The translations under genes were made by a program, and so were the position numbers. This document shows, in pieces, positions 2,363 through 17,671 of a stretch of DNA of 38,595 nucleotides (its first letter is position 1; every line of letters starts with the position of its first letter). The notes below the pieces were generated by a model. It searched no databases, was not told where the DNA came from, and was given only the letters and a program-made list of their open reading frames with translations. The stretch is from Candidatus Bathyarchaeota archaeon (GTDB lineage: Archaea > Thermoproteota > Bathyarchaeia > Bathyarchaeales > Bathyarchaeaceae): positions 1-38,595 of the forward strand of contig JAUWDY010000018.1 in the NCBI GenBank assembly GCA_030608565.1. The letters are read 5' to 3'.

Positions 2363-2421
2363 TTGTCAGCAAAAGCCTACGTTTAATTCGTAACGTTTTT
2401 TCAAAGGCGCACGCGAGAGTT

Positions 2422-3464: not shown

Positions 3465-3491
3465 ATTTTGACCTCCACTTTGCGGATAACC

Positions 3492-3535
3492 CATGCATGC
3501 ATACATACTGATTAAAAAACATTATGCGTACACGC
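3492..3535. repeat. Paired alternating purine-pyrimidine tracts
   Basis: CATGCATGCATACATAC (3492-3508) and TATGCGTACACGC (3523-3535) are both strictly alternating and separated by 14 bp of AT-rich sequence, upstream of the small basic protein gene. Confidence 0.6.
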
Positions 3536-3663
3536 TTTAGTTTAGGCAATACGATATACGAACAAAGCCCAAATACAGAGAGATTGGAGGGAACGGAGAG
3601 GCAAAGGAGAGACAGAAAGAAGACTTTTTTTATCTATTAGTTCACTAATAACAATACTTTCTA

Positions 3664-3909
3664 GTGGTCACATTGGGAAGCGATGATTGGTGTGTAGCAG
3701 TCTTTAAATGTAAGTCAGAAAATGTTGAAAAAGTCCTCGTTGGTTTCTTTGAATTCGTAAAAGATCTTCAAGGTGTGGAAGATCTGCATTTTCTTATTAG
3801 AGATCGTGCACGCATGCAGAAAGTTCAGTCACACAAGGTTGAAGCGAACTACATCAGTAGTCTTATGAAGCTCATTTCCATTACTGCAGCGATGAAGAAT
3901 ATACTGTAA
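3664..3909 (+). pseudogene. Probable truncated gene fragment (unknown family)
   Basis: 81 codons starting at GTG 3664. The first ~48 residues look like a genuine ordered protein (DDWCVAVFKCKSENVEKVLV then DLHFLIRDR). The remainder changes character and reads antisense into the end of the neighbouring membrane protein gene (overlap 3849-3909). The change falls at an alternating purine-pyrimidine tract (3805-3818). I interpret this as a gene whose 3' part was lost at that point. No ribosome-binding site is obvious and I cannot name the family. Confidence 0.4.
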
Positions 3910-4400
3910 ATGTAAGCCAAATCTTTCAGGGAAATTGTTCTACTCAGTGCCTTCTTGATTGTCAGGTATATACCGTATCCCTCGATTATCCCAATTGGTG
4001 CACTTACTACCAGAACTTTAGGAAGCGCTCCAATGTCTATCGCTCCAAAAATAAGAGTGCTTGCACGCAGAATGCTCAGAAAGACGATTAGAATTGTGAA
4101 TACTATGGCAAAGGTTCCAGGATGCTCAAGAACTACATGTTCATATTTCTGCCCTTTGAAGAAGTCTTGAACCACCAAATTAACGTAAAAGGTCATACCC
4201 AATAAAATCAGAGATACTACAGTAACGTTATGAATGAAAACCGTGAAAAAAGCTAGAAGCTGATTTGAAAATAAAGTATCTAGTGTTTGGAAGAAGATAA
4301 CGTTCTCAAAGTAGGAAAGGATCAAAAGAATTAGAAAAGCTAAACCTAGTAACACCAACCTTCTTCTTTCATCAAGCAATAGACAAGCCTCGAAGAACAA
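3849..4400 (-). CDS. Multi-pass membrane protein of unknown function
   Basis: Up to 183 residues from TTG 4400. A TTG at 4379 (MLDERRRLVLLG) is an alternative with GAGG eight bases upstream, and is perhaps better. Hydrophobic segments occur around residues 14-35, 48-72, 95-120, 122-145 and 160-180, giving about five helices. Between helices two and three lies a conserved-looking loop (DFFKGQKYEHVVLEHPGTF). The overall architecture recalls SpoIIM/DUF95-like proteins, but similarity is not strong enough to name it. The gene converges on the truncated fragment at 3664-3909. Confidence 0.65.
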   Translation of the reverse strand: MFFEACLLLDERRRLVLLGLAFLILLILSYFENVIFFQTLDTLFSNQLLAFFTVFIHNVTVVSLILLGMTFYVNLVVQDFFKGQKYEHVVLEHPGTFAIVFTILIVFLSILRASTLIFGAIDIGALPKVLVVSAPIGIIEGYGIYLTIKKALSRTISLKDLAYIYSIFFIAAVMEMSFIRLLM

Positions 4401-4465
4401 TCGGTAGGAAGTTAACGACTTAGAGATAATATGGATAAATTCATAGTCAACTTATATGATAAGAC

Positions 4466-4501
4466 CTATCGAAACTGTCCCTTCGACATTTTCTCAACCA
4501 T
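4466..4501 (-). pseudogene. Remnant of a tyrosine recombinase 3' end
   Basis: Read on the minus strand this encodes VEKMSKGQFR-stop, nearly matching the VEKMSRGKV terminus of the integrase that ends at 4798. Eighteen bases (TCGACATTTTCTCAACCA) are identical at 4484-4501 and 4811-4828. It is either the relic of an older recombinase copy or a duplicated attachment-type sequence. An alternating CATGCATGCAT tract abuts it. Confidence 0.5.
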
Positions 4502-4544
4502 GCATGCATTGAAGATATTTACGTTACGATACAAGAAGCGCGTT

Positions 4545-4687
4545 TTACTCATACCTTACCAAATAAATTGGCGCGTCTTTCAGATGCCATAAAAGCTCTC
4601 GGTACGTTTCCATGGCTTCTTCTCGCTTTTTCCTTTCATGTTAGGTATTTCTTCCTCCAATCTTCTGAGCTTAGTCACAGTCTTCAT
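4545..4687 (-). pseudogene. Frameshifted small charged gene
   Basis: From ATG 4687 the frame reads MKTVTKLRRLEEEIPNMKGK and then runs to an early stop. One frame over, the sequence continues as REEAMETYRELLWHLKDAP and IYLVRYE-stop (TAA at 4545-4547). Joining the frames with a one-base correction near 4625-4640 gives a coherent helical protein of about 47 residues. This is either a decayed gene or a base-call error. I do not recognise the family. Confidence 0.45.
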
Positions 4688-4797
4688 TTTGAACTCGCTT
4701 CATACTCTCTTTGAGTATTTCTTATATCGTAATATGTAATAAACTTTTCCGTTTCTCTGTTTAACAAATATACAATGCACGCACGCCGATCTCAAGT

Positions 4798-5382
4798 CTA
4801 AACTTTTCCTCTCGACATTTTCTCAACCAATTCTTTCACCGACATTTTCACATACCGCGTGGGCGTTTCCTCCTTGCTCCATCCAAAAAATTTCATTAAC
4901 TCTGGTACTGTCAAATCTTTTTCAATCGCTAACTGACTTGCTCTCTCCCCTCGGAACCTGTGAGGCCACCAGTCCTCATTAATCTCTGTTACCCTCCTAT
5001 ACAGCCAATCGTACTTATAGGGGAACAATAATCCTTCACCCGACTCTCGCACCCACTCCATCATCGGAGCCACCAGTGACTCTCCTTTAGGCATCGGAAC
5101 ATTCCTCTTCGCCCTCACAGGATTTCTCTGCTTCAAAACCACCATTCCTGTAATGAGGATATGATCCCCTTTATCATGGAATTGCCCACCTTTCAATGAC
5201 AAAACCTCATTAGCTCTGCCACCAGTCTCGAACAAAGTGGCAATCAATCCCTTCTCGATCATGGTGTCGCATCTATTCACCATACCCGATAAAACCTTCC
5301 ACCCGCAGAAATAGTTGATATTCAAGCAACTACGTCTATGGTACTCATGGTGAGTCCACCATCCTTCTCCCAATTTAATCAT
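4798..5382 (-). CDS. Tyrosine recombinase/integrase, catalytic domain only
   Basis: 194 residues. The catalytic residues of the lambda-type integrase family are visible: first Arg in LFETGGRANEVLSL, the His-x-x-Arg box as WWPHRFRGERASQLA, and a terminal Tyr in TPTRYVKMSVKELVEKM. There is no recognisable N-terminal SAM-like DNA-binding domain: an in-frame stop lies a few codons upstream of ATG 5382, so the gene is either a short archaeal type or 5'-truncated. It is the last gene of a same-strand block that resembles an integrated plasmid or virus. A perfect 10-bp inverted repeat (5401-5424) lies immediately upstream. Site-specific DNA integration/excision is the expected role. Confidence 0.8.
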   Translation of the reverse strand: MIKLGEGWWTHHEYHRRSCLNINYFCGWKVLSGMVNRCDTMIEKGLIATLFETGGRANEVLSLKGGQFHDKGDHILITGMVVLKQRNPVRAKRNVPMPKGESLVAPMMEWVRESGEGLLFPYKYDWLYRRVTEINEDWWPHRFRGERASQLAIEKDLTVPELMKFFGWSKEETPTRYVKMSVKELVEKMSRGKV

Positions 5383-5400
5383 TACTCCTACTGCTTTCCA

Positions 5401-5424
5401 TCAAGGAAATAATGATTTCCTTGA
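5401..5424. promoter_or_regulatory. Perfect inverted repeat upstream of integrase
   Basis: TCAAGGAAAT at 5401-5410 and its exact complement ATTTCCTTGA at 5415-5424 are separated by AATG. It sits 19 bp upstream of the integrase start codon. Plausible roles are an operator controlling the recombinase, a recombinase core site, or a terminator for the preceding gene of the block. The arms are too AT-balanced and lack the T-run expected of a terminator. Confidence 0.5.
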
Positions 5425-5656
5425 AAGAAGGTCTTTTTGGTCGTATCGTGTGATACATTTGGGGGTGTATAATATTATAGTATAGATACCCTAGACATAT
5501 ATCTCTCTCTGTCTTTTTTGGTGTTCCCTATGGTAATCCACCATAACATCCTACATACCGCTAATTTCTAGTGCTACACTATCTACTTTACCATTAGAAT
5601 CGTCAATGTAAGGTCTCTACTCTTCCATACCGAATAAAGAAAGGTCTATGGTGTTC

Positions 5657-5920
5657 TTATGGTGTTGGCGGGATACTATACACCACATACAGTTTCCTAG
5701 GACTCTCCCGTTCCCACTCTAAACAATCGTTGCTCTCAACTATCCCCTTTAGCTTCCTATACGCTGGCTCCCTTGAACACTGGTAAATTTCCTGTATCTT
5801 CGGCAACAAATCTTTCAGTCGAATCCTGTTGTTGTCCCTAAACAGTTGCGTCAGAAGTTTGCCTCTCTCACGCGCCTTTCTTATCTCTTCCGGGGTTGGC
5901 GGTTTTATGAATTGAGCCAT
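5657..5920 (-). CDS. Putative winged-helix DNA-binding protein of the integrated element
   Basis: 87 residues from ATG 5920, chosen because AGGTGA lies five to six bases upstream (complement of 5926-5931); an in-frame start nine bases further upstream would overlap that site. The sequence TPEEIRKARERGKLLTQLF, then RLKDLLPKIQEIYQCSREPA and KLYVVYSIP has the helix-helix-helix-wing outline of a winged helix, with SREPAYRKLKGIV as the likely recognition helix. No specific family is recognised. It may be a regulator of the element, given the palindromic site next to the downstream integrase. Confidence 0.6.
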   Translation of the reverse strand: MAQFIKPPTPEEIRKARERGKLLTQLFRDNNRIRLKDLLPKIQEIYQCSREPAYRKLKGIVESNDCLEWERESPRKLYVVYSIPPTP

Positions 5921-6042
5921 TTTTTTCACCTTTGGCGGCTACACGGGCTTGGAAACTCGCGACTCGTCGCTGACATAACCGCTCAAGATCAATTATTCCC
6001 TTTACAGAACTAGAATTTTTTGATTGAAACGTTATGCGTGCT

Positions 6043-7314
6043 TTACGGACGTGTAATTCTGTCCTTGTACTTCTTCTTGAAATCATAAACGTTTGCTTGA
6101 TAGCTTCTGGCAAAGAATTTAACAACTGTTTCCGCTAATCCTTCAATCTCAACATCGAGGAATTTTGCTCCCACGCTGAAACCTAGCCCTGCAAGGAATC
6201 CCTCTAAACCTCCAGTAAATGCTGATGCTGCACTTCCTATAGCAGCTATTGAAATAGGTACACCTGTTCTGATATCTTTTATCTGTTTTGGGATTGTCTT
6301 GTCGTTCCAGACGTTATCGAGAATTCCAGACAGATCTTCTGCATTTTTTTTCACTATGTCAGGATGATTTGTAACTATTGCGTCATTCATGGATTCTTGG
6401 ATCTTTTGCAAATCGTAGTCATCATAATGGTCAATTACATCATAACATGCTCTCATCCCTAGTGGGGCATAAGTCAGCTTTTTCAAAAGAAATTTGCCAA
6501 TCTCATACGGAAATCGAACTTCTTCTGGTCGGTAAAAAGCTGGGAGAACACTAGCAGACTTTGTCTCCGCAAACGTGAAGTTTACTAATTTGCTACGTTG
6601 GTCACGTAAAGGACCGACAATGAAGTCGTTGCAAACTGAAAGTACCCTCACTGCTTCATGAAAGTCATCTACCATGAGAGCTTCGACCTCCTCAACAATT
6701 GTGTAATGTCTAAGCTTGAGAGTTACGTACGCGCTTAGACAGAAACTCAAATAATATCTGAAGAGCCCAGACCCAAACTGTCGACTAACAGTCTCCTTCA
6801 GAGAATCAAAAAATCCAAGACTTCCCAGAGTGAAGAAGGTGGCTTTGGCTTCCTCAATCTCTTTTTCATTAAAGAAAATGGTGTGTGGAATTGTATGGTG
6901 GACTGGAGGTTTCAATTCTTCGAAAAACGGGTCAAGATAATCCAGTCCCTCATATTGAAGCGCAGTCGCCCCGAGAACTACCTGCAATCTTCCCGTATCT
7001 TTGATGAAATCGATTACTGAGGGTATTTCTGATTTTTTGAAAAACCACGCCTCAAATTCTGAATAAGAAATTGGAGGAAGTGAGAGAATTAAGGAACCAC
7101 AAAAGGGAACTTGAGCCCAAATTCTCTCCCATTTAGTGGAGTCACGTGATGCAACTGCGACGGGCTTCTGAAGTTTCACAAAACGGTCATCAGTAGGAAA
7201 CCTATCCTTCTCAAAATCGAATTTTCCTTCTCGTATCCTCATTTCGAGCTTTTCGACTTCACTTCGCTCTTTCTGCTCATAATCCTCCAGATATTCCCTA
7301 TCCAAAATACTCAA
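6043..7314 (-). CDS. Unknown 423-residue protein of the integrated element
   Basis: Starts at TTG 7314 (MSILDREYLEDYEQKERSEV) with no ribosome-binding site, so it may be leaderless. The N-terminal 35 residues are highly charged and likely helical. The middle is a mixed alpha/beta region with many aromatic residues. Near residues ~350-385 there is a glycine/alanine-rich hydrophobic hairpin (SIAAIGSAASAFTGGLEGF and following) that could insert into a membrane or form an oligomer interface. The C-terminus is basic (FKKKYKDRITRP). I do not recognise a family. Its position between the ATPase and the small DNA-binding protein suggests an element-borne role. Confidence 0.65.
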   Translation of the reverse strand: MSILDREYLEDYEQKERSEVEKLEMRIREGKFDFEKDRFPTDDRFVKLQKPVAVASRDSTKWERIWAQVPFCGSLILSLPPISYSEFEAWFFKKSEIPSVIDFIKDTGRLQVVLGATALQYEGLDYLDPFFEELKPPVHHTIPHTIFFNEKEIEEAKATFFTLGSLGFFDSLKETVSRQFGSGLFRYYLSFCLSAYVTLKLRHYTIVEEVEALMVDDFHEAVRVLSVCNDFIVGPLRDQRSKLVNFTFAETKSASVLPAFYRPEEVRFPYEIGKFLLKKLTYAPLGMRACYDVIDHYDDYDLQKIQESMNDAIVTNHPDIVKKNAEDLSGILDNVWNDKTIPKQIKDIRTGVPISIAAIGSAASAFTGGLEGFLAGLGFSVGAKFLDVEIEGLAETVVKFFARSYQANVYDFKKKYKDRITRP

Positions 7315-7320
7315 CCATAT

Positions 7321-7592
7321 TACTCAATGCAGATCAATCCTATTTGTATTACGCACGCGCTGCTCCGATGAGGGATACGATATTTTTTTCCCTTATCTTA
7401 CTCTTTAATATCTAAAACTCAAATCTCTACATCTACATAACATAAAAAACCCTCATATCCCTCATCGTTCACCATCAGCTACCGCTTCCCAGACGTCTTC
7501 GAACCCTGATCTCTGAATGCTGCAGATAATAACTTGTCTTGACCCATGTTACTTTAATATATTAATAAAATAACTTGTCTTAAGCCAAGATA
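7321..7592. other. AT-rich repeat region, candidate replication origin of the element
   Basis: 272 bp without a gene between the 423-residue protein and the ATPase. It contains a 12-bp inverted repeat (CGATGAGGGATA at 7366-7377; TATCCCTCATCG at 7456-7467), two copies of AATAACTTGTCTT (7528-7540 and 7569-7581), the palindrome-rich TTAATATATTAATAA at 7554-7568, and an alternating TACGCACGCGC tract (7350-7360). Iteron-like repeats plus an AT-rich segment beside a helicase-like gene are typical of plasmid origins. That role is inference; promoter/operator functions could also explain the repeats. Confidence 0.4.
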
Positions 7593-9314
7593 TTATCTAC
7601 GCCTCTGAATGTACTTGAACTTCCTGTCCCCAATCGTCTTTTCCGTGATTTCGTATTCATCGCTATGATTGCTAACAAACTTCTTTATTCTCTGCCGTGC
7701 AGCTTCTTTACTCAAACCAAATCCTTCGTTAATAGCCTTCACCAGATCGCCGTGATAAATCCCTGTTTCACCGATTTTCTCCCGCACAAATTTGTCGAAA
7801 CTTTCCCATGGAATCAAACACATCACCTCCTCGTCATCTTTTTCAAACGTCACATCTCTAACTTCAAATTCTACCTGAATCTCACGGGGGATCAAACCGA
7901 AAACGTAAATCCTCCTTTGACGTAGCGCAGGCCTCACGCGGTGTATAGCCTGATACATTTCATACTCCTCAACCATCCGTCGAAAATTTTCTAGGTCAGG
8001 ATCAGCATATCTGTATCCGCCGTCAAATTGTTTTACAGCTTCTGTTGCCCAAGATTTTCGATGGTAGAATTTCTCAAAGTTCTTGACCAAGCCTTCAATG
8101 TTCACTTTGTAGGTGCCGATAACAATGAGTACGTCACAGTGTTCAAGTTTATTGCTCCCACGTAGATTGCCAAAATCCAGAGATATTATGTGGGCATAAT
8201 GTCCCGCTGGGGTTGGGAGGAAATCGGCTAAGCCAGCATTTTTGGGCTTGATTATTCCAACTTTCAGTTCGGAAAGTGGCTTCTCCTGAGATAAGAGAAT
8301 TGTTTCAATCCGTTGTCTGATTATTTGTCTTTCACGTCTGTTCTTGGTTATTGACGTGGTCGTTGGAAACCAAGCATCTGAATATTTTGGGCTTCTAACG
8401 CGAAATACAATGGATTTTGCGATAGGCTGGTCGAGAGTCATTCTTTCGTAGTGAAGTTTGATCGGTTCGCCATGTTCTTTCTGGAAGCTCTTGGTTAGCA
8501 TCTCTAGAAAGGCGTTGTTAATCTGCGCTCCAACAATAATGACTTCTCTATTCTTTTCCATCGACAACTCGAAAATTGGCATTAGAATAGGAACGGAAAA
8601 CTCCTCTTGCCATCCATAAATTCTAGACAATCTGTACCAGTCGAGAAGTTGTACGGGGTCAATTTGAAGTAGTACGTTACGCGCAGCTTCTTTTGAGAGT
8701 TCGCTTCCTTCCTTGAGTAGTCTCTGCAAGCCTTTTTTTAGTCTAGGTTCTATCGTGTAAAGTACGTAGCGTTTGAGACTCTCGCTTTGTGCTTCAAAAA
8801 GCTCTTCTAAAGTGTTGTAGTCGGATGCGTTCAAGTTGCAGAGTTGATGTACATAGTTCCTCATGGTTGTAAGGTGAGGCAAGTCGCTTTTCATCAATAC
8901 GACGTCGTCAACTACTACTAGGTCAGGGTCATATTTCTTGACGTGCGCAGTGAATAGGTAAGTGGCAGGAGCAATCACGATATTTGCTGGGTTTTGAAAT
9001 TGTTCTTTGTGCTTGCATTCCTTAGGGGATATGAGTTTCAATGATTGACATAATTGACATATCCAACGAGTGGGAGCGTTGACTTCAAGCATTGTTCTTA
9101 TTGGCTCTTCATGTTTCAACGGGCAAATGAGCTTCATACCATACCAGTGAGTGACTTCCAATCCTCCAAGGAAATTCTCACGCTCGTCAAGCTGTTTGTG
9201 AGAAGTGATGAGGTAGATCTTCTTCTTGTCAGGATTGCTTCTGAGCAGCTCATCAATTGTCTTTGTTTTCCCGACGCCAGGAATTCCAGTGATAATCTTG
9301 ATTTCATTGGTCAT
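7593..9314 (-). CDS. P-loop ATPase, XPD/DinG-like with four-Cys insert and C-terminal winged helix
   Basis: 573 residues. Walker A is GIPGVGKT (residues 10-17); a Walker B-like DLVVVDDVV is at 131-139. Between them lie Cys64, Cys86, Cys89 and Cys100 (C-x21-C-x2-C-x10-C), followed by Q-x-x-N-P-A-N-I-V-I-A-P-A-T-Y-L. This is the order seen around the iron-sulphur cluster of XPD/DinG helicases. Near residue 455 is YQAIHRVRPALRQRRIYVF, resembling helicase motif VI (Q-x-x-x-R-x-x-R). The last ~75 residues (FDKFVREKIGETGIYHGDLV..., SKEAARQRIKKFVS) form a probable winged helix. I infer a replicative or recombination helicase of the integrated element. A zinc site instead of Fe-S is possible. Its ATG overlaps the stop of the upstream gene (ATGA). 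Confidence 0.7.
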   Translation of the reverse strand: MTNEIKIITGIPGVGKTKTIDELLRSNPDKKKIYLITSHKQLDERENFLGGLEVTHWYGMKLICPLKHEEPIRTMLEVNAPTRWICQLCQSLKLISPKECKHKEQFQNPANIVIAPATYLFTAHVKKYDPDLVVVDDVVLMKSDLPHLTTMRNYVHQLCNLNASDYNTLEELFEAQSESLKRYVLYTIEPRLKKGLQRLLKEGSELSKEAARNVLLQIDPVQLLDWYRLSRIYGWQEEFSVPILMPIFELSMEKNREVIIVGAQINNAFLEMLTKSFQKEHGEPIKLHYERMTLDQPIAKSIVFRVRSPKYSDAWFPTTTSITKNRRERQIIRQRIETILLSQEKPLSELKVGIIKPKNAGLADFLPTPAGHYAHIISLDFGNLRGSNKLEHCDVLIVIGTYKVNIEGLVKNFEKFYHRKSWATEAVKQFDGGYRYADPDLENFRRMVEEYEMYQAIHRVRPALRQRRIYVFGLIPREIQVEFEVRDVTFEKDDEEVMCLIPWESFDKFVREKIGETGIYHGDLVKAINEGFGLSKEAARQRIKKFVSNHSDEYEITEKTIGDRKFKYIQRRR

Positions 9315-9508
9315 TTCTCCTTCACCTGTGCCAACGGTGCAACTCCTTCTCTATCTCCGACCGAAAGCTCACGCTCTTCCATTAAATCCGCATAAAGATA
9401 TGTCCAGTTCAAGTCCTCTAACAGTTCCCTAAAAGTTTTCTTCCGCGTTGAGGAATGATCTATTGAGGTTACCCGCCTCCCTTTTTTTGTCAAATCATGT
9501 TTCAGCAC
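9311..9508 (-). CDS. Small unknown protein coupled to the ATPase
   Basis: 65 residues from GTG 9508 (MLKHDLTKKGRRVTSIDHSS), ending in an ATGA overlap with the ATPase start, which implies translational coupling. It has a basic N-terminus and an acidic central helix (TFRELLEDLNWTYLYADLMEER). No family is recognised. A start at TTG 9493 is an alternative, with AGGTG about ten bases upstream. Position alone suggests it assists or regulates the ATPase. Confidence 0.55.
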   Translation of the reverse strand: MLKHDLTKKGRRVTSIDHSSTRKKTFRELLEDLNWTYLYADLMEERELSVGDREGVAPLAQVKEK

Positions 9509-9518
9509 CTAGTGGCGA

Positions 9519-9812
9519 TTAGGATTTAGCTAGGTCTTGTAACAATCGCAGAAATTTTACTTCCCTGCTCTTTGGATTGTTCATATAGCCGTTTTTCACA
9601 GCGAAGTCATAAAATTCCAGAAGTTTCCTCGCTTCCTTTGGAGATAGGATTTTTCTTGATTGCGTTAGGTGATCTTGGTATTGCTCTACAAGGACTATCG
9701 CATAACCCCAGCAGTTTGGGCATTGTGTCTGACGAGGTATGTTGGCAGAGCTGAATTTTGTGAGCCACTTGTGTCCACAGCTAAAGCACATAGCCATATT
9801 TCTCTTGCTCAT
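9519..9812 (-). CDS. Zinc-ribbon protein of the integrated element
   Basis: 97 residues. A four-cysteine zinc ribbon is clear at the N-terminus: CFSCGHKW (Cys9, Cys12) and CPNCWG. The rest is helical (KEARKLLEFYDFAVKNGYM, VKFLRLLQDLAKS). Small ribbon proteins of this kind are common first genes of archaeal virus and plasmid operons and usually bind DNA. It is the promoter-proximal gene of the block running 9812 to 4798; ten bases separate it from the next gene. The upstream region 9830-9860 is AT-rich, as expected for a promoter. Confidence 0.7.
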   Translation of the reverse strand: MSKRNMAMCFSCGHKWLTKFSSANIPRQTQCPNCWGYAIVLVEQYQDHLTQSRKILSPKEARKLLEFYDFAVKNGYMNNPKSREVKFLRLLQDLAKS

Positions 9813-9945
9813 AATTAACCCTAGTCATAATTTAATGATGCTCATTAATAACTTTGATTTATGTTTTCCTCTAAAAACGAAACAAGCCTTAAACCTCAAA
9901 GAGCATGCATGCTAAAACACACAATTTGAATAGAGGTGAGAAAGG

Positions 9946-10344
9946 TTGACAGCAAAAGAATTTACGCTTACTCTGCACTTCGTGTCCTGTCGTCTCCCAA
10001 GTCTGTTATATCCCATATTCACTGAGCACCTGCATCCTGAAATGCAAGCCCTGTATCGCAAAAAGAAAATCGTTAAGGAAAAGGAAGTGGTAGGTATCAT
10101 GTTCAATGTGAAAAAGCCAGTGGAAATAGGGCGAAAACTAAAAGAAATGGCTCTTTATCAGGTAAAGGTGAGTTATCTACGGAAAAACCTATACCTCTAC
10201 TTACCTACAGGTGAAGCCCGCCATTTCCGATTGAAGAAAGGAGATGTCAAAATCAAGTGCGAGCTCAAGGGCAACTGGTTTAAACTCTACTATCCTAGAG
10301 CAAAAAGATTATGTACGATTGAGTCTTTCTTCACGAAGGCATAA
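9946..10344 (+). CDS. Unknown 132-residue basic protein
   Basis: Starts at TTG 9946, with AGGTGA at 9934-9939 placed six bases upstream, which fixes the start. The N-terminus (MTAKEFTLTLHFVSCRLPSL) looks like a beta strand followed by a hydrophobic turn. The C-terminal half is rich in Lys/Tyr and beta-prone (ARHFRLKKGDVKIKCELKGN, WFKLYYPRAKRLCTIESFF). No family is recognised. It is divergent from the element operon and convergent with the polymerase X gene, and may belong to the accessory region rather than to the core chromosome. Confidence 0.6.
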   Translation: MTAKEFTLTLHFVSCRLPSLLYPIFTEHLHPEMQALYRKKKIVKEKEVVGIMFNVKKPVEIGRKLKEMALYQVKVSYLRKNLYLYLPTGEARHFRLKKGDVKIKCELKGNWFKLYYPRAKRLCTIESFFTKA

Positions 10345-10366
10345 TAGGACTCAGAAATCATCGAAG

Positions 10367-10828
10367 CTAATCCCTTTCCTCTGGCGCAACATAGGGTAAG
10401 TCTAGAGCCTCAAAAATCTCCTTCTCTGTTGACGCAATCACTTCACCGTTCTTTGTCAATCCGCTATGGCTTAATTTCAAACCTTTCTTCTGCGCGATCA
10501 TTGAAAGCTTAATGTTATGTTCTGCCGAGCCTGTCCTAATCAAAACGAGCGTTCCCCATGTTTCAGGTGTGGCGAGATAGAGGTCGATCTGTTCACCTTT
10601 GTAAGCCACTCGTTTCACTTGTTTTCCGTCAATGCTGATTTTGGAGATTTTTCTGAGCTTAAGCGTGAAGTCCCACCAGCGTTCAGGTTTGATCAAGAGG
10701 ACAAGATCAATATCCTTCACTTCTGGTTTGCGTCTCCGAATAGAACCAACGATCTTGACTTTCTCACAGTACTCGGCTATTTCGTTTATGAACTGCTCAG
10801 CTAACCGTTGTGCTTCTTCTAATTGCAT
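10367..10828 (-). CDS. Minimal family X DNA polymerase/nucleotidyltransferase
   Basis: 153 residues. The nucleotidyltransferase motif is complete: VGSIRRRKPEVKDIDLVLLI (Gly28-Ser29, Asp39 and Asp41) and the third carboxylate Asp82 in QIDLYLA. It is followed by the family X thumb signature RTGSAEHNIKLSMIAQKKG and the ending TEKEIFEALDLPYVAPEERD. It lacks the N-terminal 8-kDa helix-hairpin-helix domain and the PHP domain common in larger prokaryotic PolX, so it resembles palm-plus-thumb minimal forms. Base-excision or end-joining gap filling is the usual role. Its promoter and first eight codons are duplicated 2,920 bp to the right. Confidence 0.85.
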   Translation of the reverse strand: MQLEEAQRLAEQFINEIAEYCEKVKIVGSIRRRKPEVKDIDLVLLIKPERWWDFTLKLRKISKISIDGKQVKRVAYKGEQIDLYLATPETWGTLVLIRTGSAEHNIKLSMIAQKKGLKLSHSGLTKNGEVIASTEKEIFEALDLPYVAPEERD

Positions 10829-10907
10829 ATCTAAATTTTACGGGGAATGATTTAAAGTTCCTTTTATCATGTACTAAATATACGTATTATCTCCGGATGC
10901 ATGCATG
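10804..10907. repeat. polX: Direct repeat copy 1 (polX promoter and first codons)
   Basis: This 104-bp stretch aligns without gaps to 13724-13827, exactly 2,920 bp away and in the same orientation, at roughly 80 per cent identity; the first 33 bases are identical. It contains the polX start and its upstream region (TTTATCATG, TATACGTATTAT). The two copies bracket the NUDIX, dUTPase-like and SIR2 genes. Confidence 0.8.
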
Positions 10908-10947
10908 GCTAGAAGAATGATCTATCGTAGGGACATACACATGCATA
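10897..10947. repeat. Paired alternating purine-pyrimidine tracts
   Basis: ATGCATGCATG (10897-10907) and ACATACACATGCATA (10933-10947), between the polX promoter and the end of the dUTPase-like gene. The second ends two bases before that stop codon. Confidence 0.6.
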
Positions 10948-10949
10948 AG

Positions 10950-11687
10950 CTAATCGCTTTTCAAAAGGGCATTAAGGATCCAAAACAATGATGAAGAGAA
11001 TGCTACAAACAGAGCGACTTCACCCTCATTCACGCCTACAGACAGGTAAAGATGCAGAAGATAGAGTAATGGAATTAATAAGCCTGATATCTTTAAAATG
11101 TTGAAAAGAAGTTTTTTGCCAATGCGTTTTGGTGGTAAACTCCATTCTTCCAAAAGGAATGTGATATGTTTATTTGGGTCTTTTTCACAAATCTGTGTAG
11201 CAGGCTTTTCGTTCTTGAAAAAAATCACCGTGCAAAACGGCTGTTCCCTTTTAAGCGTGACACTTCTCTTTGAATGATTAGTTAATGTAACTACCATCTT
11301 TCCTTTATAGTCAGGGTCCAGAGATGTAGAAATATGAGATAGCCCTTTTTCTGCAATCGAAACTTTTGACACCAATATGCCAGAATATTCCCGATTTTGG
11401 GGCATCCCAATAAATTCCTCTGTTTCGATTGCTACAATTTCATTATGTTTTATCGTAATCCTACTGTTCCTCTTTAGACGATTAGACTTCGCTTGTGGTC
11501 GCGTAAGTCTAGTAGACATCTTCAGATAGCGCTCACCAACCCTCAAATCATATCCGACTGGTGTGAGGCATGGCCTATGAAAGGGAGCTATCAACAATTT
11601 CTCTTGTTGGGTATCAGGATCCTGCATCCAATCTCTTTTGGCGTTTATTAGAATCTCATCTATTGATGTGTCCGTAAGTAGTGTCAT
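10950..11687 (-). CDS. dUTPase/dCTP deaminase-fold protein with C-terminal membrane anchor
   Basis: 245 residues from ATG 11687, which overlaps the upstream stop as ATGA. The dUTPase/DCD beta-fold is recognisable: PVGYDLRVGERYLKM (residues ~43-57), GILVSKVSIAEKGL, the substrate-loop equivalent STSLDPDYKGKMVVTLTNHS, and REQPFCTVIFF. The C-terminal 55 residues carry two hydrophobic helices (LLFNILKISGLLIPLLYLLH and VALFVAFSSSLFWILNALL), which would tether it to the membrane. Ordinary dUTPases and DCDs are soluble, so this is unusual. The catalytic identity (dUTP hydrolysis, dCTP deamination, or only nucleotide sensing) cannot be read with confidence. It is translationally coupled to a NUDIX gene, suggesting a joint role in nucleotide-based control or defence. 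Confidence 0.75.
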   Translation of the reverse strand: MTLLTDTSIDEILINAKRDWMQDPDTQQEKLLIAPFHRPCLTPVGYDLRVGERYLKMSTRLTRPQAKSNRLKRNSRITIKHNEIVAIETEEFIGMPQNREYSGILVSKVSIAEKGLSHISTSLDPDYKGKMVVTLTNHSKRSVTLKREQPFCTVIFFKNEKPATQICEKDPNKHITFLLEEWSLPPKRIGKKLLFNILKISGLLIPLLYLLHLYLSVGVNEGEVALFVAFSSSLFWILNALLKSD

Positions 11688-12373
11688 TTCACAAGCCCCC
11701 TTGTACGCTTGTGAAGAAAATCTATTAACAATTGTGACCACGCTTCAAAACTTGATCGTTTTCTTTTCAGATGCTCGAGATCCATAAATTCCATTTTGCT
11801 CAATCCTTTTCCCTTTCGGAAAACTTTCGGCTCTTCGACTTCCAGCATCCACACTAAGCCAAAATGTACAAGACCCACCACATTGGAGTCGTCATTAACG
11901 AAGCAAAGGAGTTCAGGTCCCCTTACTATTTTAGACTGGATATTCACTTCCTCCTTGATCTCACGCCAAACTCCGCGAATAATAAAATCCAAGCCTCTGC
12001 TTTTATTGTACTGCGAGTGTGTGTGTAGTTGGCGTTGATTCTTATCCCCGACATTTACATGACCTCCTACTCCCAACGAGTATTTGTTATGTAATCTCTC
12101 TTCTCGGCTTTTCTCGGTTCTTTTGTAGATCAGATATAACTGCTCCGCTTTGATGAGTATATATACTACTAATTGTTTGTAATCATAGTTCTTCTCAGCC
12201 TTTGACCGAGAGAGCAACTCTAGGTTATCCAAGATGTCTTCCCACAATTGCACATCGTAGAAAGTCCTCTGATTGGAGATAGGATATTTTGAGAGGATGC
12301 TTCTTCTAAAGCATAATAGTTCTTCTTCGTTACGTGCTATTTTCGCACTTTTGAACATTTTCTCTTCTGCCAT
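11684..12373 (-). CDS. NUDIX hydrolase (COG4112-like)
   Basis: 229 residues. The NUDIX box is present but interrupted: LGVGGHVNVGD, then about 19 extra residues (KNQRQLHTHSQYNKSRGLDF), then IIRGVWREIKEEVNI. The REIKEE core that binds Mg2+ is intact; Asp replaces the usual first Glu. A similar insertion occurs in COG4112-type phosphoesterases. The N-terminal half (residues 1-90) is a helical/beta extension. The family cleaves nucleoside diphosphates linked to another moiety. It is first in a two-gene operon with the membrane-anchored dUTPase-like protein (ATGA overlap) and divergent from a SIR2-like gene across ~140 bp. Confidence 0.82.
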   Translation of the reverse strand: MAEEKMFKSAKIARNEEELLCFRRSILSKYPISNQRTFYDVQLWEDILDNLELLSRSKAEKNYDYKQLVVYILIKAEQLYLIYKRTEKSREERLHNKYSLGVGGHVNVGDKNQRQLHTHSQYNKSRGLDFIIRGVWREIKEEVNIQSKIVRGPELLCFVNDDSNVVGLVHFGLVWMLEVEEPKVFRKGKGLSKMEFMDLEHLKRKRSSFEAWSQLLIDFLHKRTRGLVK

Positions 12374-12419
12374 AAGTTAAATGGTTTTAGTGAGAAATAT
12401 CTTTTACGGGACAAGTATT

Positions 12420-12441
12420 GCATGCAACTAACCGAACTTCA
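12420..12441. repeat. Short direct repeat, left copy, flanking the SIR2 gene
   Basis: GCATGCAACTAACCGAACTT plus two more bases; the right copy is at 13649-13671 with a single extra A. Both begin with GCATGC. Read on the minus strand each copy ends in Lys-Phe-Gly-stop, the C-terminus of a small zinc-ribbon fragment better preserved at the right copy. The repeats bracket the SIR2-like gene and imply insertion or recombination here. Confidence 0.6.
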
Positions 12442-12515
12442 AATGCAGGCGCGCTAAAGCAAATTCCTCTGTTTTAAAATAGCGAAAATTAAACATACAA
12501 CTAAGAGTACATATT

Positions 12516-13643
12516 TTGCAGGGTTTGAGATTGATTGTATTCCTTGGAGCAGGTGCCTCGAATGTTTTCGGGATTCCAACAATGCCAGGGTTCATCAATA
12601 CGTTTGACAGGGAAAAAAGTTGGGGCCAAGGATTTCAACACACACATATACGCGGATTTTACAATGGAATAAAGAGTAGGTTCAGCGAAGATGAATTTGA
12701 CCTTGAAGTTCTGATGACAATATTAGAAGACCTAGCTAAGAAGGGAAAAGACCTTTTCAAGACAGTTTCACCACAGACGACTGATTTCCTCTTTAGAACG
12801 TCACGCAAGGAAGCACTTCGCTATATAAACAACAAAGGGATTAAAGTGCTCGCGGAAGAACTGCTGACAAAACTCAAACAGATCATTCGCAAGGAATGCC
12901 GTAATGCTGTGGAAAGGAGCAAACAAGTTGACAACATTCTCTCTAAGTATGATCAATTGTTCAAGATTCTCTCAGACCCACGAATAGTAATGGAAATGGT
13001 CTCAGGAGATGGCGCGGTAAAATATCCCTCTGACTTGAAGATAATCACCACAAACTGGGATAACTGTGTGGAGACGTATTTCAACAGGCGCCAAATAGAA
13101 TTCTCGAACGGAATTGTTTTAAGGCGTGGGGAAAATGTCTTCGACATTAATTCATTTCAGGACAATGAAGCACTAGTCGGTATTTTCAAGCTACATGGTT
13201 CAGTAGACCTTTTTAGCAAAGCCGATAAGATCAGAAAGCTTTCAGCTTTTCCTGAGGGAAGAACTTCTTTTGGAGAGGAATTTGGAGACGAAGTAATGCG
13301 ATGGCCAATAGAGTTTGGGGGGTATAGAAGGATTATGGAAAGTCCCTATTTGGATCTGTTTCGACTGTTCCGCCAAAGAATAGAAAAAGACAGGATTTGG
13401 ATTCTGATCGGTTCCTCCTTTCGAGATATTTCAATTTGTTCCACAATGAATGATGTGGTAAGACTAAAAATACAGAGAAATTATCCCAAAGTTGTTTTCA
13501 TAAATCCCTCTGCACAAGCTGTAGTCAAAAGATTGAGAGAGTGGGATATGATCATTCTGGCTGATTTGATGGAGAAAAATATGATTGAAGAGCGATGGGG
13601 ATCAGATGCATGCAACACCAAATTGTCGAACTTCCTAAAATGA
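12516..13643 (+). CDS. SIR2-like domain protein, putative defence NADase
   Basis: 375 residues from TTG 12516. The SIR2_2-type fold is marked by IVFLGAGASNVFGIPTMPGF (GAGAS at 11-15), ITTNWDNCVE (residues 177-186) with the NAD-handling Asn, FKLHGSVD with the catalytic-type His227, and a late IGSSFRD. A helical insert occupies ~50-165. Proteins of this class are NAD-degrading effectors in many anti-phage systems rather than protein deacetylases; no zinc-binding Cys tetrad is present, in agreement. TATA-like TTTTAAAATA lies at 12472-12481. The gene stands between short direct repeats and is divergent from the NUDIX/dUTPase-like pair. NADase activity is inferred from the family. Confidence 0.8.
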   Translation: MQGLRLIVFLGAGASNVFGIPTMPGFINTFDREKSWGQGFQHTHIRGFYNGIKSRFSEDEFDLEVLMTILEDLAKKGKDLFKTVSPQTTDFLFRTSRKEALRYINNKGIKVLAEELLTKLKQIIRKECRNAVERSKQVDNILSKYDQLFKILSDPRIVMEMVSGDGAVKYPSDLKIITTNWDNCVETYFNRRQIEFSNGIVLRRGENVFDINSFQDNEALVGIFKLHGSVDLFSKADKIRKLSAFPEGRTSFGEEFGDEVMRWPIEFGGYRRIMESPYLDLFRLFRQRIEKDRIWILIGSSFRDISICSTMNDVVRLKIQRNYPKVVFINPSAQAVVKRLREWDMIILADLMEKNMIEERWGSDACNTKLSNFLK

Positions 13644-13648
13644 TGCAT

Positions 13649-13671
13649 GCATGCAAACTAACCGAACTTCA
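13649..13671. repeat. Short direct repeat, right copy, flanking the SIR2 gene
   Basis: Matches 12420-12441 apart from one inserted A. It begins six bases after the SIR2 stop codon, within an alternating GCATGCATGC tract (13643-13655). Confidence 0.6.
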
Positions 13672-13726
13672 TCTGTTTAAGCTCTTTCTCCTCGTAACCG
13701 CATATCCGACACCGCCACCGTTTACC
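13658..13726 (-). pseudogene. C-terminal fragment of a zinc-ribbon gene
   Basis: Minus-strand reading gives NGKRWRCRICGYEEKELKQM then KFG-stop (TAG at 13658-13660). The W-x-C-x-x-C-G-Y knuckle is typical of the second half of a zinc ribbon. Upstream the frame is closed, and the sequence fuses into the duplicated polX start, so this is a chimeric scar rather than a gene. Confidence 0.45.
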
Positions 13727-13827
13727 GTTGTGCTTCTTCTAATTGCATATCTAAATCTTGCTGTTGAGAGCATAAAGTTCCTTTTATCATGTGATAATTA
13801 TACGTATTGTCTCAATGTGCGCTGCAT
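13724..13827 (-). pseudogene. polX: Duplicated polX promoter and first codons (copy 2)
   Basis: Ungapped copy of 10804-10907. On the minus strand it encodes MQLEEAQR followed directly by a stop, then unrelated zinc-ribbon sequence. It shows that a recombination event carried the 5' end of polX to the far side of the NUDIX/SIR2 cassette. Confidence 0.7.
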
Positions 13828-13839
13828 GAGCTACAAGAA

Positions 13840-13885
13840 AGTATATAAATGAGTTTACAACACTCTACTCTTAGTAGAGAGATCT
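13840..13885 (+). promoter_or_regulatory. TATA-like box and hairpin upstream of the virus-like gene block
   Basis: GTATATAAATGAG at 13839-13851 is a good archaeal TATA box. It is followed by CTCTAC-TCTTA-GTAGAG, a perfect 6-bp stem at about 13863-13879, before the start codon at 13906. Spacing fits transcription starting near 13870-13875, so the hairpin would lie at the promoter or in the short leader. Confidence 0.45.
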
Positions 13886-13905
13886 AGACTAGAGCGTGAG
13901 CCGAG

Positions 13906-14949
13906 ATGACAGATTCAGTATTCGACGAAGAAAAGTCCTGGGGGTTCGTTCGTTTGAAGGACGCGACCCCATTCTCGCAGGAACGCGATAGGGATCATCT
14001 TGCCGTTCAATTCGAGATCTCAGGCCCCGAGGCTAGGGAAGCACTCGCCAGACAGCTATCTTGGTCTGCAGTTTGCAAAGCAGAGGAGAAAATGCGTCGC
14101 GAAGTCACAAAAATCCAAGAAGAGATAGACCAGCTGAAAAGGATACTCGCTCAGTCCTCTACCACGTCCTTCGCACGCCTCTCAGTGGAAGCTCGAATAA
14201 GGGAATTGGAAAATAAGCTGGAGCGAAAGAGCTTATACGTCCTAGCCACTTCACTGAAACGGACAAACAATAGTCGATCGCGTCGCCCTCATTTTCGTGA
14301 TCAAGAAGGTGAGCCAGATGATAGCAATTCAGCCTCTGACCAGACTGTGGACAGCCTTCTCAGTGACATCTTCTTCGCTCACTATGTGGAAGGACATACC
14401 TACTGGCGTGCCGTCCACGTTCGCATAACGCGCTCAAACCAGATAGAAAGTGAAAGGACTGAATCGAGTTCCACAAAGGTACAGGGTTCCTTCATCCACT
14501 TCAGCAAGGATGCATTATCACACTTTCAAAACTGCCCTCTACCGCCACTAGTACTAGTCAGCCCAATAAGCCGCACCCACGAGAGAAACATCAATCTGTT
14601 GGCGAAAGGGTGCTTCGCCTGCAGCTCTCCATATATTCACGAACCAAATCTATCTGGAGGTCACATAGCATGGAAAAAGCCAAAAGGATCATTGACAAGT
14701 GCATTGGGGCGTCACGAAGAGCCCACACCGCAGAAGCCAGTAGGCTCGCTAGACTGCTTCACAAGCTTTTCGAGTTCCTCCGGGAACATCCGGAATATGT
14801 GCCAAAAACCATGTCAGCACTCTTCAAGCTCTACAGAAGCATTCTCGCAGGAGACTATACCGCGGCAATTGACTTGGCATACCTCATCCTCACCCTTGTC
14901 AAACATCTTAGAAAGAAGTGAAGACCTTCATTGCGGGGAGATGAATTGA
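13906..14949 (+). CDS. Unknown protein with coiled coil; 3' part doubtful
   Basis: Starts at ATG 13906 (MTDSVFDEEKSWGFVRLKDA). Residues ~55-130 are a strong coiled coil (AEEKMRREVTKIQEEIDQL and later ARIRELENKLERK). A polar linker then leads to a more ordered region (HYVEGHTYWRAVHVRITRS, then VQGSFIHFSKDALSHFQNCP). The last ~90 residues are Ser/Pro-rich and overlap, in another frame, a better-looking gene at 14670-14921, so they may not be native. Either the genes overlap or a frameshift lies near 14600-14670. The base composition is more GC-rich than the neighbouring chromosome. No family is recognised; the context suggests a virus or plasmid. Confidence 0.5.
   Translation: MTDSVFDEEKSWGFVRLKDATPFSQERDRDHLAVQFEISGPEAREALARQLSWSAVCKAEEKMRREVTKIQEEIDQLKRILAQSSTTSFARLSVEARIRELENKLERKSLYVLATSLKRTNNSRSRRPHFRDQEGEPDDSNSASDQTVDSLLSDIFFAHYVEGHTYWRAVHVRITRSNQIESERTESSSTKVQGSFIHFSKDALSHFQNCPLPPLVLVSPISRTHERNINLLAKGCFACSSPYIHEPNLSGGHIAWKKPKGSLTSALGRHEEPTPQKPVGSLDCFTSFSSSSGNIRNMCQKPCQHSSSSTEAFSQETIPRQLTWHTSSSPLSNILERSEDLHCGEMN
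14670..14921 (+). CDS. Small helical protein of the virus-like block
   Basis: 83 residues from ATG 14670, supported by GGAGGT eight bases upstream (14656-14661). It is entirely helical: MEKAKRIIDKCIGASRRAHT, then RLARLLHKLFEFLREHPEYV, then a C-terminal hydrophobic helix (AAIDLAYLILTLVKHL) with a basic end. It lies inside the frame of the preceding coiled-coil gene but in another reading frame. The good ribosome-binding site and amphipathic pattern make this the more credible of the two here. Function unknown. Confidence 0.6.
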   Translation: MEKAKRIIDKCIGASRRAHTAEASRLARLLHKLFEFLREHPEYVPKTMSALFKLYRSILAGDYTAAIDLAYLILTLVKHLRKK

Positions 14950-15392
14950 CAACCTCCCGTACAGTAGATTTCATAATCGACGGCAAGAAGATCACGTCGA
15001 AAGCCCAAGATATTGAGCTCAAAATAGATGGCGTAAGAGTATACCCCACTAGTGATCGAAATCGGGGCGATCAGGTTGACACCAAAGACATGGAGTGGCG
15101 TAGCGTCAAGTCTCTCCTAAGAACTGCTGATTCAGCCTTTAGCCATAGCGACAGATTTCGCATAACAAAATCACTGGCCGAATCCCCCAAATCATTCACC
15201 GAAATCAAGAGTCTTTTAAGCAAGACATCCGCTACAACCGATTTCCACTTGAAAACCTTAATCAAGGGAATGATAACCTTCAAGGACGAGAACGGTAAAT
15301 ACGCCTTGACCATATTGGGAGAACTTGTGTTCAGCTACTTTTCAACTTTCCTGAAAGATGCCAGAGATCTGCAGAAAGAGTTACTGATGTAA
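14946..15392 (+). CDS. Winged-helix (ArsR-like) DNA-binding protein
   Basis: 148 residues from TTG 14946, chosen because GGGGAG (14935-14940) is five bases upstream; a TTG at 14931 would place that site inside the gene. The N-terminal ~50 residues are beta-prone (TVDFIIDGKKITSKAQDIEL). The C-terminal half is a winged helix: DRFRITKSLAESPKSFTEIK, then SATTDFHLKTLIKGMITFKD, the last being the recognition helix and wing. It is likely the transcriptional regulator of the small block starting at 13906. Confidence 0.7.
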   Translation: MTTSRTVDFIIDGKKITSKAQDIELKIDGVRVYPTSDRNRGDQVDTKDMEWRSVKSLLRTADSAFSHSDRFRITKSLAESPKSFTEIKSLLSKTSATTDFHLKTLIKGMITFKDENGKYALTILGELVFSYFSTFLKDARDLQKELLM

Positions 15393-15622
15393 CTCAAATA
15401 GCTTGAAAGAAAGTATACCTCTTCAGCTCTTCCTATTGGATGCGAACAGCAGAAACGTTGTGAACATAACATAGTCTAGGTCTTTCTTCCTCTCTAATCT
15501 CTATTATTTGCTGTAATCTTCCGTCTTACCAGAAAATAATGGTGTAAGCTAACAAAGGAACGGTGTTTTGCTCTTCCTTTGAATGGTTTTCAAGACCACA
15601 CAAAAAATGTGCGTACCTATTA

Positions 15623-15938
15623 ACCACAAAAGAGATTGTGAAGAAATGCAAAGTGGGACTTTATGTTTACAACAGAAACCTCGCTTATTGCGCTAACTGC
15701 CAAAAAACCTTTTATGGGGTACCGCTGAAATGTCCGTTATGCGGATCAGTTAATATGCTGATTTGCTTCAGCCGTGTCTCAGCAAAGCATTTACCAGCAC
15801 CTTTTTCGAATCCAACCCAGATTTCAGCTCTAAGCAACCGAGTATCATACGTGTTAATTTCAACCTAAGTTTCGTATAAAATTTTATACAACTTCTCTAA
15901 AAATTTAAAATAGAATTACCTTCCATTTAAACAAGTTT
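15623..15938 (+). pseudogene. Duplicated 3' end of the NrdD-like gene
   Basis: The last ~82 codons, the stop and about 70 bp of downstream sequence of the NrdD-like gene ending at 33297 are repeated here on the opposite strand (parent 33231-33543). The zinc ribbon (YCANCQKTFYG, CPLCGSVNM) and the tail ending VLIST are retained with only a few substitutions. The flanking palindrome GTATAAAATTTTATAC (15874-15889) is perfect here and imperfect in the parent. No start codon with a ribosome-binding site exists, so it is a non-functional copy lying just before tRNA-Leu. Confidence 0.85.
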
Positions 15939-15956
15939 AATTCAAACGTTTTGAAG

Positions 15957-16045
15957 GCCGGGGTGCCGGAGTATGGATAACGGGCCCGTCTTAAAAACGG
16001 GTACTCACTCCGAGTTCGTGGGCTCAAATCCCACCCCCGGCGCCA
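15957..16045 (+). tRNA. tRNA-Leu (anticodon TAA), CCA encoded
   Basis: Acceptor GCCGGGG (15957-15963) pairs with CCCCGGC (16035-16041). The D-stem is CCG/CGG, the anticodon stem CCCGT/ACGGG with loop CTTAAAA, giving anticodon TAA. The long variable arm (ACTC/GAGT) marks a class II tRNA, and the T-arm is GTGGG-CTCAAAT-CCCAC. CCA is encoded. No intron. Two oddities: the discriminator base is G, whereas archaeal tRNA-Leu usually has A (G is typical of tRNA-Ser), and T-loop position 54 is C. A tyrosine recombinase gene begins its 3' end 130 bp downstream, making this tRNA a candidate integration site. Confidence 0.9.
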
Positions 16046-16144
16046 AGAGTTTGACTGTTTGACTTTGTACTTGCAATGTAAATATGCTGGTATATATAAA
16101 AAAGTATATCAAGAGTTAAACATGATAGAGATGTGCTGATTAAT

Positions 16145-16164
16145 TGCATGCATGCACACGCACA
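16145..16164. repeat. Longest alternating purine-pyrimidine tract (20 bases)
   Basis: Strict alternation over 16145-16164, combining GCATGCATGC and CACACGCAC words, 14 bases beyond the stop codon of the second integrase. Confidence 0.65.
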
Positions 16165-16177
16165 ACAGTCAGAAGCT

Positions 16178-17392: not shown

Positions 17393-17671
17393 TTCTGATC
17401 AAGATTATATCCTCAACTTCCTACTTAAACCTTTAGTCAACTAATTTATTATATGGATTATGAACTTTGAAAATGGATTCAAAGATCAGCTTACAGCGTC
17501 CCGGCAAACTTGAAATACGACTAAAATGATAATATTTTCTGAAAAGGTCTGGTCTAAATCAAGGATGTGAATGAATGAGACTACACAAAGTCACAAGAAC
17601 CAAAATCTCAGCAAACACTCAAGCTTTCCAAGAAAGCTCTTTAAAAACTAACTCTTCACTACCTTTTGGGA

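What the first reader, a model, noticed from the sequence alone, without database searches (positions are those of the whole stretch)
4466..9812. Integrated element with an XPD/DinG-like four-Cys ATPase
Seen: six same-strand genes from a zinc-ribbon protein to an integrase, with coupled starts. The ATPase has C-x21-C-x2-C-x10-C between Walker A and B, followed by the Q...N-P-A-N-I-V-I-A-P pattern of iron-sulphur helicases, and a C-terminal winged helix. No capsid gene is recognised. It may be a new plasmid or virus family of this lineage.
Basis: partly seen in the sequence, partly recalled or inferred. Interest (0 to 1): 0.65.

Follow-up and report, generated by a model that had tools for sequence, protein, structure and literature searches.

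The report
Cryptic integrated element with XPD-like helicase
A stretch of a sediment archaeon's chromosome looks like a small mobile DNA element that carries its own compact integrase and a very unusual relative of iron-sulphur DNA helicases, but it has no recognisable virus genes and its right-hand end could not be found.

Summary
The six minus-strand genes and the four-cysteine ATPase are really there. They lie in a Bathyarchaeia genome, inside a region (about window 3614-17500) missing from the closest held relative. The 573-aa ATPase occurs in none of 255 other genomes of the class. Its only close relative among 398 phylum genomes is a 458-aa XPD/Rad3/DinG-type protein. That homology is solid for the first RecA-like half, cysteines included. 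The second half is not shown, motif II reads VDDV instead of DExH, and the structure model failed. The integrase is a natural ~200-aa catalytic-domain-only form, not a fragment. Its 3' end carries an 18-bp core that recurs 329 bp further on; a third exact copy sits on another contig, at a junction where relatives lose synteny. The 423-aa protein belongs to a family carried by unrelated mobile elements: a 14-kb tRNA-Ser element and a casposon-like element. Best reading: a small cryptic integrated element, or its remnant, with an XPD-like helicase and a travelling cargo gene. 'Plasmid or virus family' is not shown: no structural gene, no relative with the same block, no right-hand att site.

The parts
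9519..9812 (-). 97-aa CxxC...CxxC (zinc-ribbon-like) protein, first gene of the block
   Evidence: weak sub-threshold zinc-finger hits only
9311..9508 (-). 65-aa protein, stop overlaps the ATPase start by 4 nt
   Evidence: no family hit
7593..9314 (-). 573-aa ATPase: Walker A, four-Cys insertion (C64, C86, C89, C100), VVVDDV motif II, motif-VI-like QAIHRVRP at 455, C-terminal winged-helix-like end
7315..7592 (.). 278-bp intergenic stretch with a perfect 12-bp inverted repeat (7366-7377 / 7456-7467) and a 24-nt direct repeat (7528-7551 / 7569-7592); candidate operator or origin (inference)
   Evidence: 1 of 500 dinucleotide shuffles reaches the inverted-repeat score
6043..7314 (-). 423-aa protein of a family carried by unrelated archaeal mobile elements (candidate cargo)
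5657..5929 (-). 90-aa wHTH-like protein, weakly similar to the C-terminus of the ATPase
   Evidence: 17 of 5000 shuffles reach the score
4798..5382 (-). 194-aa short tyrosine integrase, catalytic domain only
4812..4829 (.). 18-bp att-like core inside the integrase 3' end (candidate attP)
4435..4505 (.). 71-bp repeat holding the second core copy (4483-4500); also present on contig C17 of the same genome at a synteny break
3614..17500 (.). variable region with no counterpart at the syntenic place in G003; holds the block and a second integrase

Best explanation
The block is a small cryptic integrated mobile element, or what is left of one, in a Bathyarchaeia chromosome. Shown: it lies in a region absent from the closest relative; its helicase-like gene is not in other genomes of the class; it carries a compact tyrosine integrase of a natural short family whose 3' end holds a sequence repeated at two other places of this genome. 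Inferred: the integrase recombines that 18-bp core (attP in its own 3' end) with chromosomal copies. The operon zinc-ribbon protein / 65-aa protein / XPD-like ATPase then serves replication or maintenance: the winged helix of the ATPase binds the intergenic repeats at 7315-7592 and the ATPase unwinds or remodels DNA there. The 90-aa wHTH protein binds similar DNA as a regulator. The 423-aa protein is a passenger that travels on several unrelated elements, most likely for defence or inter-element competition.
For: ATPase in 1 of 256 class genomes, own only, and 1 of 61 relatives. Window 5-3302 and 17501-22943 are syntenic with G003, 3614-17500 is not there. Integrase Pfam hit. 13 of 255 other class genomes carry relatives at E <= 1e-10; the best-covered ones are ORFs of 198-248 aa that match the window protein nearly end to end, so it is not an IntC fragment. 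Core TCGACATTTTCTCAACCA: exact copies at 4483 and 4812 and on contig C17, no other exact copy in G000; the reversed control pattern has 0 hits in G000. On C17, synteny with G003 and G001 stops at the first base of the repeat. ATPase first half against L054: E 7.3e-6 in one genome; the profile of L061+L062 hits it at 1.2e-5, best of 200 shuffles 0.57. The 423-aa family lies inside a 14-kb tRNA-Ser element bounded by a 21/22-nt repeat and inside a 5.6-kb segment with 173-bp inverted repeats, a Cas1 in two ORFs, next to EF-2. Cryptic integrated elements with a superfamily 2 helicase are described for Thaumarchaeota (PMC6563490, section 13 read).
Against: Both core copies in the contig lie on the left side (329 bp apart), so no pair of att sites brackets the block, and no right end was found (up to 3 mismatches). 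The core repeat sits 35-38 nt upstream of a gene start at both outer places, so it may be a shared promoter or operator region. Nearly the same short integrase occurs among chromosomal genes of the same kinds in several genomes of family f9, so it need not be an element's integrase. In none of the loci read do the ATPase, the 423-aa gene and the short integrase occur together outside the window, and no other class genome has the ATPase at all. The helicase role is not shown: motif II is VDDV, the second RecA-like half is not clearly above shuffles, and the fold failed.
Confidence: 0.58

Rival explanations
1. Composite plasticity zone: several elements (two integrases, defence-like genes, copied gene ends) landed in the same 14 kb and decayed; the six genes are neighbours by accident, not one element.
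For: Second full-length integrase at 16178-17392 next to tRNA-Leu; an inverted copy of the nrdD-like 3' end at 15623-15929; a direct repeat 10804/13724; no att pair brackets the block; no locus read has the same combination.
Against: Six consecutive genes on one strand, intact frames, the first three tightly packed; the 3' end of the integrase shares its core with the repeat just beyond it.
Confidence: 0.3
2. Mobile defence module: the XPD/DinG-like ATPase and the 423-aa protein act against invading DNA, as CasDinG does in type IV CRISPR immunity.
For: The nearest relatives of the ATPase match the PADLOC model PDLC01439 typeIV_DinG (8.6e-26 and 2.6e-35) and stand next to HerA-like ATPases that match mad8. 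In G137 the 423-aa family stands near DUF4062, TIR-like and OLD-like genes. SIR2-like gene nearby in the window.
Against: The window ATPase itself reaches only mad8 at 0.025, and the three 423-family proteins scanned hit no PADLOC family. The 423-aa family does not stand next to the ATPase in the other loci.
Confidence: 0.2
3. Provirus: the block is the replication end of a virus whose structural genes were lost or lie elsewhere.
For: Zinc-ribbon and wHTH genes, helicase and integrase are common in archaeal viruses (general knowledge); Bathyarchaeia viruses with integrases are described (PMC10848311, passages).
Against: No capsid, portal, terminase or other structural family above chance among the proteins scanned; no relative of the ATPase or 423-aa protein in 50,697 phage records or by pattern scan in IMG/VR.
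Confidence: 0.06

Closest known systems
Cryptic integrated elements of Thaumarchaeota (PMC6563490, section 13 read)
   Same: small, integrase plus wHTH plus diverse replication-type ATPases, some with a superfamily 2 helicase, no structural or conjugation genes
   Different: here the class is Bathyarchaeia, the integrase lacks the N-terminal domain, the helicase is XPD-like and divergent, and no bracketing att pair was found
XPD/Rad3/DinG iron-sulphur helicases, through the 458- and 486-aa proteins of L054 and L081
   Same: Walker A, a motif-Ia-like stretch, four-Cys insertion, the NPANIVIAP-like strand before motif II, motif-VI-like QAIHRVRP
   Different: motif II VDDV instead of DExH, shorter cysteine spacing than the cellular XPD-like proteins read here, own C-terminal winged helix, second half unproven, below Pfam thresholds
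CasDinG of type IV-A CRISPR (PMC10450177, start of abstract seen in search listing)
   Same: mobile-element-borne DinG-type helicase; the abstract calls its FeS domain vestigial
   Different: here all four cysteines are present and no Cas effector gene was found among the window proteins scanned
Short tyrosine recombinases of ~200 aa in Bathyarchaeia family f9 and in G227
   Same: catalytic domain only, 32-38% identical
   Different: in f9 genomes the gene sits among similar chromosomal genes; in G227 it overlaps a HerA-like gene

Membership tests
XPD/Rad3/DinG Fe-S helicase | Walker A P-loop | tested here: met
   GIPGVGKT at residue 10; AAA_22 1.8e-5, just under its cut-off
XPD/Rad3/DinG Fe-S helicase | four cysteines between Walker A and motif II | tested here: met
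   C64, C86, C89, C100; C64, C89 and C100 align with cysteines of both L061 and L062
XPD/Rad3/DinG Fe-S helicase | motif II DExH | tested here: not met
   VVVDDVVLM; relatives have DECH and DEAH
XPD/Rad3/DinG Fe-S helicase | homology of the first RecA-like domain | tested here: met
   0 of 1000 shuffles reach the scores against L061 and L062; profile hit 1.2e-5; but a cellular-XPD-only profile does not hit
XPD/Rad3/DinG Fe-S helicase | second RecA-like domain with motifs IV-VI | tested here: inconclusive
   25 to 821 of 1000 shuffles reach the scores against six relatives; QAIHRVRP by eye; model pLDDT 36.8
XPD/Rad3/DinG Fe-S helicase | bound Fe-S cluster and 5'-3' unwinding | not testable with these tools
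   needs purified protein
Cryptic integrated element | integrase gene | tested here: met
   PF00589 34.6 bits, cut-off 27.1
Cryptic integrated element | absent from the syntenic place in relatives | tested here: met
   G003 lacks window 3614-17500; it has about 2 kb of other genes there, so not a clean empty site
Cryptic integrated element | att repeats on both sides | tested here: inconclusive
   two copies on the left only, a third on another contig
SSV-type (suicide) integrase | gene split into N- and C-parts on integration | tested here: not met
   194 aa matches nearly the whole length of relatives of ~200-235 aa
Provirus | structural genes | tested here: not met
   none above chance among proteins scanned

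The most novel reading that the evidence does not exclude
A new kind of small archaeal element that replicates with a divergent XPD-type iron-sulphur helicase carrying its own origin-binding winged helix, moved by a minimal integrase without core-binding domain, and loaded with a cargo gene (the 423-aa family) that hops between tyrosine-recombinase elements and casposons of different archaeal classes.
Probability: 0.25. Interest if true: 0.62.

Novelty: new variant of a known kind. Interest (0 to 1): 0.42.

Why it matters
Few mobile elements are described for Bathyarchaeia. If right, an iron-sulphur helicase normally used for DNA repair has been taken over by a small element. The 423-aa family would also be a testable cargo gene, shared by a casposon-like element and by integrase elements of two archaeal groups. 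Both point to traffic between element types that are usually treated apart.

Tried and rejected
Relatives of the ATPase: tblastn in phages and plasmids, pattern scans of IMG/VR and GTDB 220 genomes found none; PDB by sequence none worth keeping. SSV-type split integrase was considered because the gene seemed short; rejected since relatives are equally short. A provirus was considered; rejected for want of structural genes. Fold of the ATPase: single sequence, mean pLDDT 36.8, useless. Fold of the 423-aa family with five sequences: mean 53.8, residues 1-232 mostly better; Foldseek against the PDB found nothing with E <= 0.001. The three-row profile A4 hit 141 of 256 class genomes, but two of its rows are XPD-like themselves, so it is no independent evidence for the window protein and I do not count it. 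Weak hits to the ATPase at E 0.005-1 in 28 phylum genomes were dropped; in the one place looked at (L055), where only residues 503-572 matched, the ORF looks like a ribosomal-type protein (recalled label).
Full report
Where it is. The window is the whole of contig C9 of an archaeal genome of 1.76 Mb, 98.5% complete. The class is taken to be Bathyarchaeia: three of four named records that matched the 423-aa protein are Bathyarchaeota MAGs, and their contig lengths equal those of the contigs of the class genomes G137, G165 and G012.

The genes. The first three (97, 65, 573 aa) are packed like an operon; the 423-, 90- and 194-aa genes stand apart by 278, 113 and 274 bp. Pfam, PHROGs, PADLOC and NCBIfam name only the integrase with confidence. 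The 97-aa protein has CxxC pairs and only sub-threshold zinc-finger hits.

Mobile setting. In the closest held relative G003 the left flank (window 5-3302, 91%) and the right flank (17501-17978 and 17901-22943, 86-92%) lie about 2 kb apart, with other genes between. Window 3302-3613 is found in G003 at another nearby place, and 3614-17500 has no counterpart there except a 307-bp stretch that is a copy of the nrdD-like 3' end. The ATPase is in 1 of 61 relatives and 1 of 256 class genomes, in both cases only the own genome; the three other same-genus genomes, 77-99% complete, lack it.

The ATPase. Among 398 phylum genomes only the own genome and G538 match at E <= 0.001 (7.3e-6, residues 7-141). 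The G538 protein (458 aa, L054) and its relative in G550 (486 aa, L081) carry DExH motif II, and hit DEAD, DEAD_2 and Helicase_C_2. For L054, DEAD_2 and Helicase_C_2 are just under their cut-offs; for L081 both are above. They also hit the rad3 (5.8e-18 for L081) and type IV DinG models. L054 in turn matches, at E <= 0.001, places in 66 of 81 genomes of its class, itself included, mostly in ORFs of about 600-700 aa, which I take for cellular XPD. A profile of the two relatives finds the window protein at 1.2e-5 (Z = 1000; residues 33-139), against 0.57 for the best of 200 shuffles; a profile of five cellular XPD-like proteins alone does not. Local alignment of the first 225 residues gives 111 and 80 against the two relatives, with 0 of 1000 shuffles as high; against four cellular proteins it is much weaker (13 to 629 of 1000 shuffles as high). 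For the second half 25 to 821 of 1000 shuffles are as high for six proteins. So the XPD link is firm for the cysteine-bearing first domain, through the two short relatives, and open for the rest. Motif II reads VDDV; a glutamate is expected there (recalled), so activity is uncertain. The fold attempt failed.

The integrase and its site. The 194-aa protein has relatives in 13 of 255 other class genomes (E <= 1e-10), the closest being whole proteins of about 200 aa, so it is not truncated. In several family-f9 genomes the gene sits among the same kinds of chromosomal genes (for two loci scanned: MFS-kinase fusion, DUF4147/MOFRL, amino-acid kinase), which suggests that such integrases can be fixed genes; this counts against reading it as an element's own enzyme. 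In G227 it overlaps a HerA-like gene that follows, after a 134-aa ORF, a 999-aa protein with a sliding-clamp-like end. The last codons hold TCGACATTTTCTCAACCA; an exact copy lies 329 bp further on, and a third on contig C17. The outer copy and the C17 copy share 62-71 nt at 79%. On C17 synteny with G003 and G001 ends at the first bases of that repeat (L126 8501/8502; in G007 already at 8475), and the sequence after 8653 lies at another place in G003 and G001. This fits a recombination site used by the integrase, or a rearrangement point, but the repeat also sits 35-38 nt upstream of a gene start at both places, so a shared promoter region is not excluded. No third copy exists in the contig within 3 mismatches, so the right end of the element is unknown.

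The 423-aa family. Relatives: 4 of 255 other class genomes (one only a fragment) and one Nitrososphaera MAG. In G012 the gene follows a full-length integrase beside tRNA-Ser. A 22-nt repeat of the tRNA end (21 of 22) lies at C100:34457-34478, which bounds a 14-kb element that also holds a 1002-aa protein with a weak MCM hit. In the Nitrososphaera MAG it lies with a Cas1 in two overlapping ORFs between inverted repeats of 173 bp (94%), directly after EF-2. Thaumarchaeal casposons are reported to favour EF-2 (PMC6563490, passage). In G137 it stands near defence-like genes. In G165 its last third is replaced by an acetyltransferase domain. In four of five members the C-terminal part has a hydrophobic stretch (best 19-residue mean hydropathy there 1.44 to 2.18), too weak to call a membrane segment with confidence. 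No phage or plasmid record has it. A travelling cargo gene is the natural reading; defence is a guess.

How it may work. The intergenic stretch 7315-7592 has a perfect 12-bp inverted repeat (1 of 500 shuffles as good) and a 24-nt direct repeat. The C-terminus of the ATPase resembles the 90-aa protein (17 of 5000 shuffles as good). I infer that both bind there, the ATPase to open or remodel DNA and the small protein to regulate. None of this is shown.

Literature. Five searches were made. They listed Bathyarchaeia viruses (PMC10848311; passages seen, no DinG or XPD in its main text) and Thaumarchaeota elements (PMC6563490; passages and section 13 read). In the listings shown none was about an XPD-type helicase on a Bathyarchaeia element; that is the extent of my claim of novelty. 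PMC4158269 and PMC8371274 were seen in passages.

Noticed in passing
window 15957-17392: tRNA-Leu followed by a second, full-length XerA-like tyrosine integrase (404 aa); both lie in the region absent from G003.
   Followed up: partly
window 15623-15929 and 33236-33542: A 307-bp, 94% identical inverted copy of the 3' end of an nrdD-like gene (33297-35621) sits just before tRNA-Leu; in G003 only the copy at the gene was seen.
   Followed up: partly
window 10804-10917 and 13724-13839: Direct repeat of about 115 bp at 80%, one copy at the start of the PolX-like gene and one between genes of the SIR2 cluster.
   Followed up: no
window 12516-15392: SIR2-like protein (best PADLOC hit 4.6e-18) with neighbours that include a protein with weak CARF/Csa3 hits: defence-like cluster.
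   Followed up: no
window 10367-12373: PolX-thumb nucleotidyltransferase, dCTP-deaminase-like protein with a long C-terminal extension, and a 229-aa protein of phrog_8902 whose relatives are in 61 phage records (40 of Staphylococcus), some labelled nudix.
   Followed up: partly
L059 6877-12457: Small casposon-like segment (173-bp inverted repeats, Cas1 in two overlapping ORFs, 423-family gene, no polymerase seen) after EF-2 in Nitrososphaera sp. L.E.AR.1.
   Followed up: partly
L017 7617-9204 (G003): The tRNA next to the variable region has its 3' part repeated about 1.4 kb further on, around a 434-aa gene: another insertion at the same spot.
   Followed up: no
L054 392-2871 and L081 549-3514: HerA-like ATPase followed by a short XPD/DinG-like helicase, twice in different genomes; the HerA-like proteins match mad8 and the helicases a type IV DinG model.
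   Followed up: partly
window 3490, 4500, 9903, 10908, 16150 and L126: Runs such as ATGCATGCATG recur in intergenic stretches of this genome.
   Followed up: no
window 17672-17772 (minus): ARAGORN run with introns allowed reports a tRNA with a CTA anticodon (called Pyl) in both this genome and G003; possibly a mis-called intron-containing tRNA.
   Followed up: no
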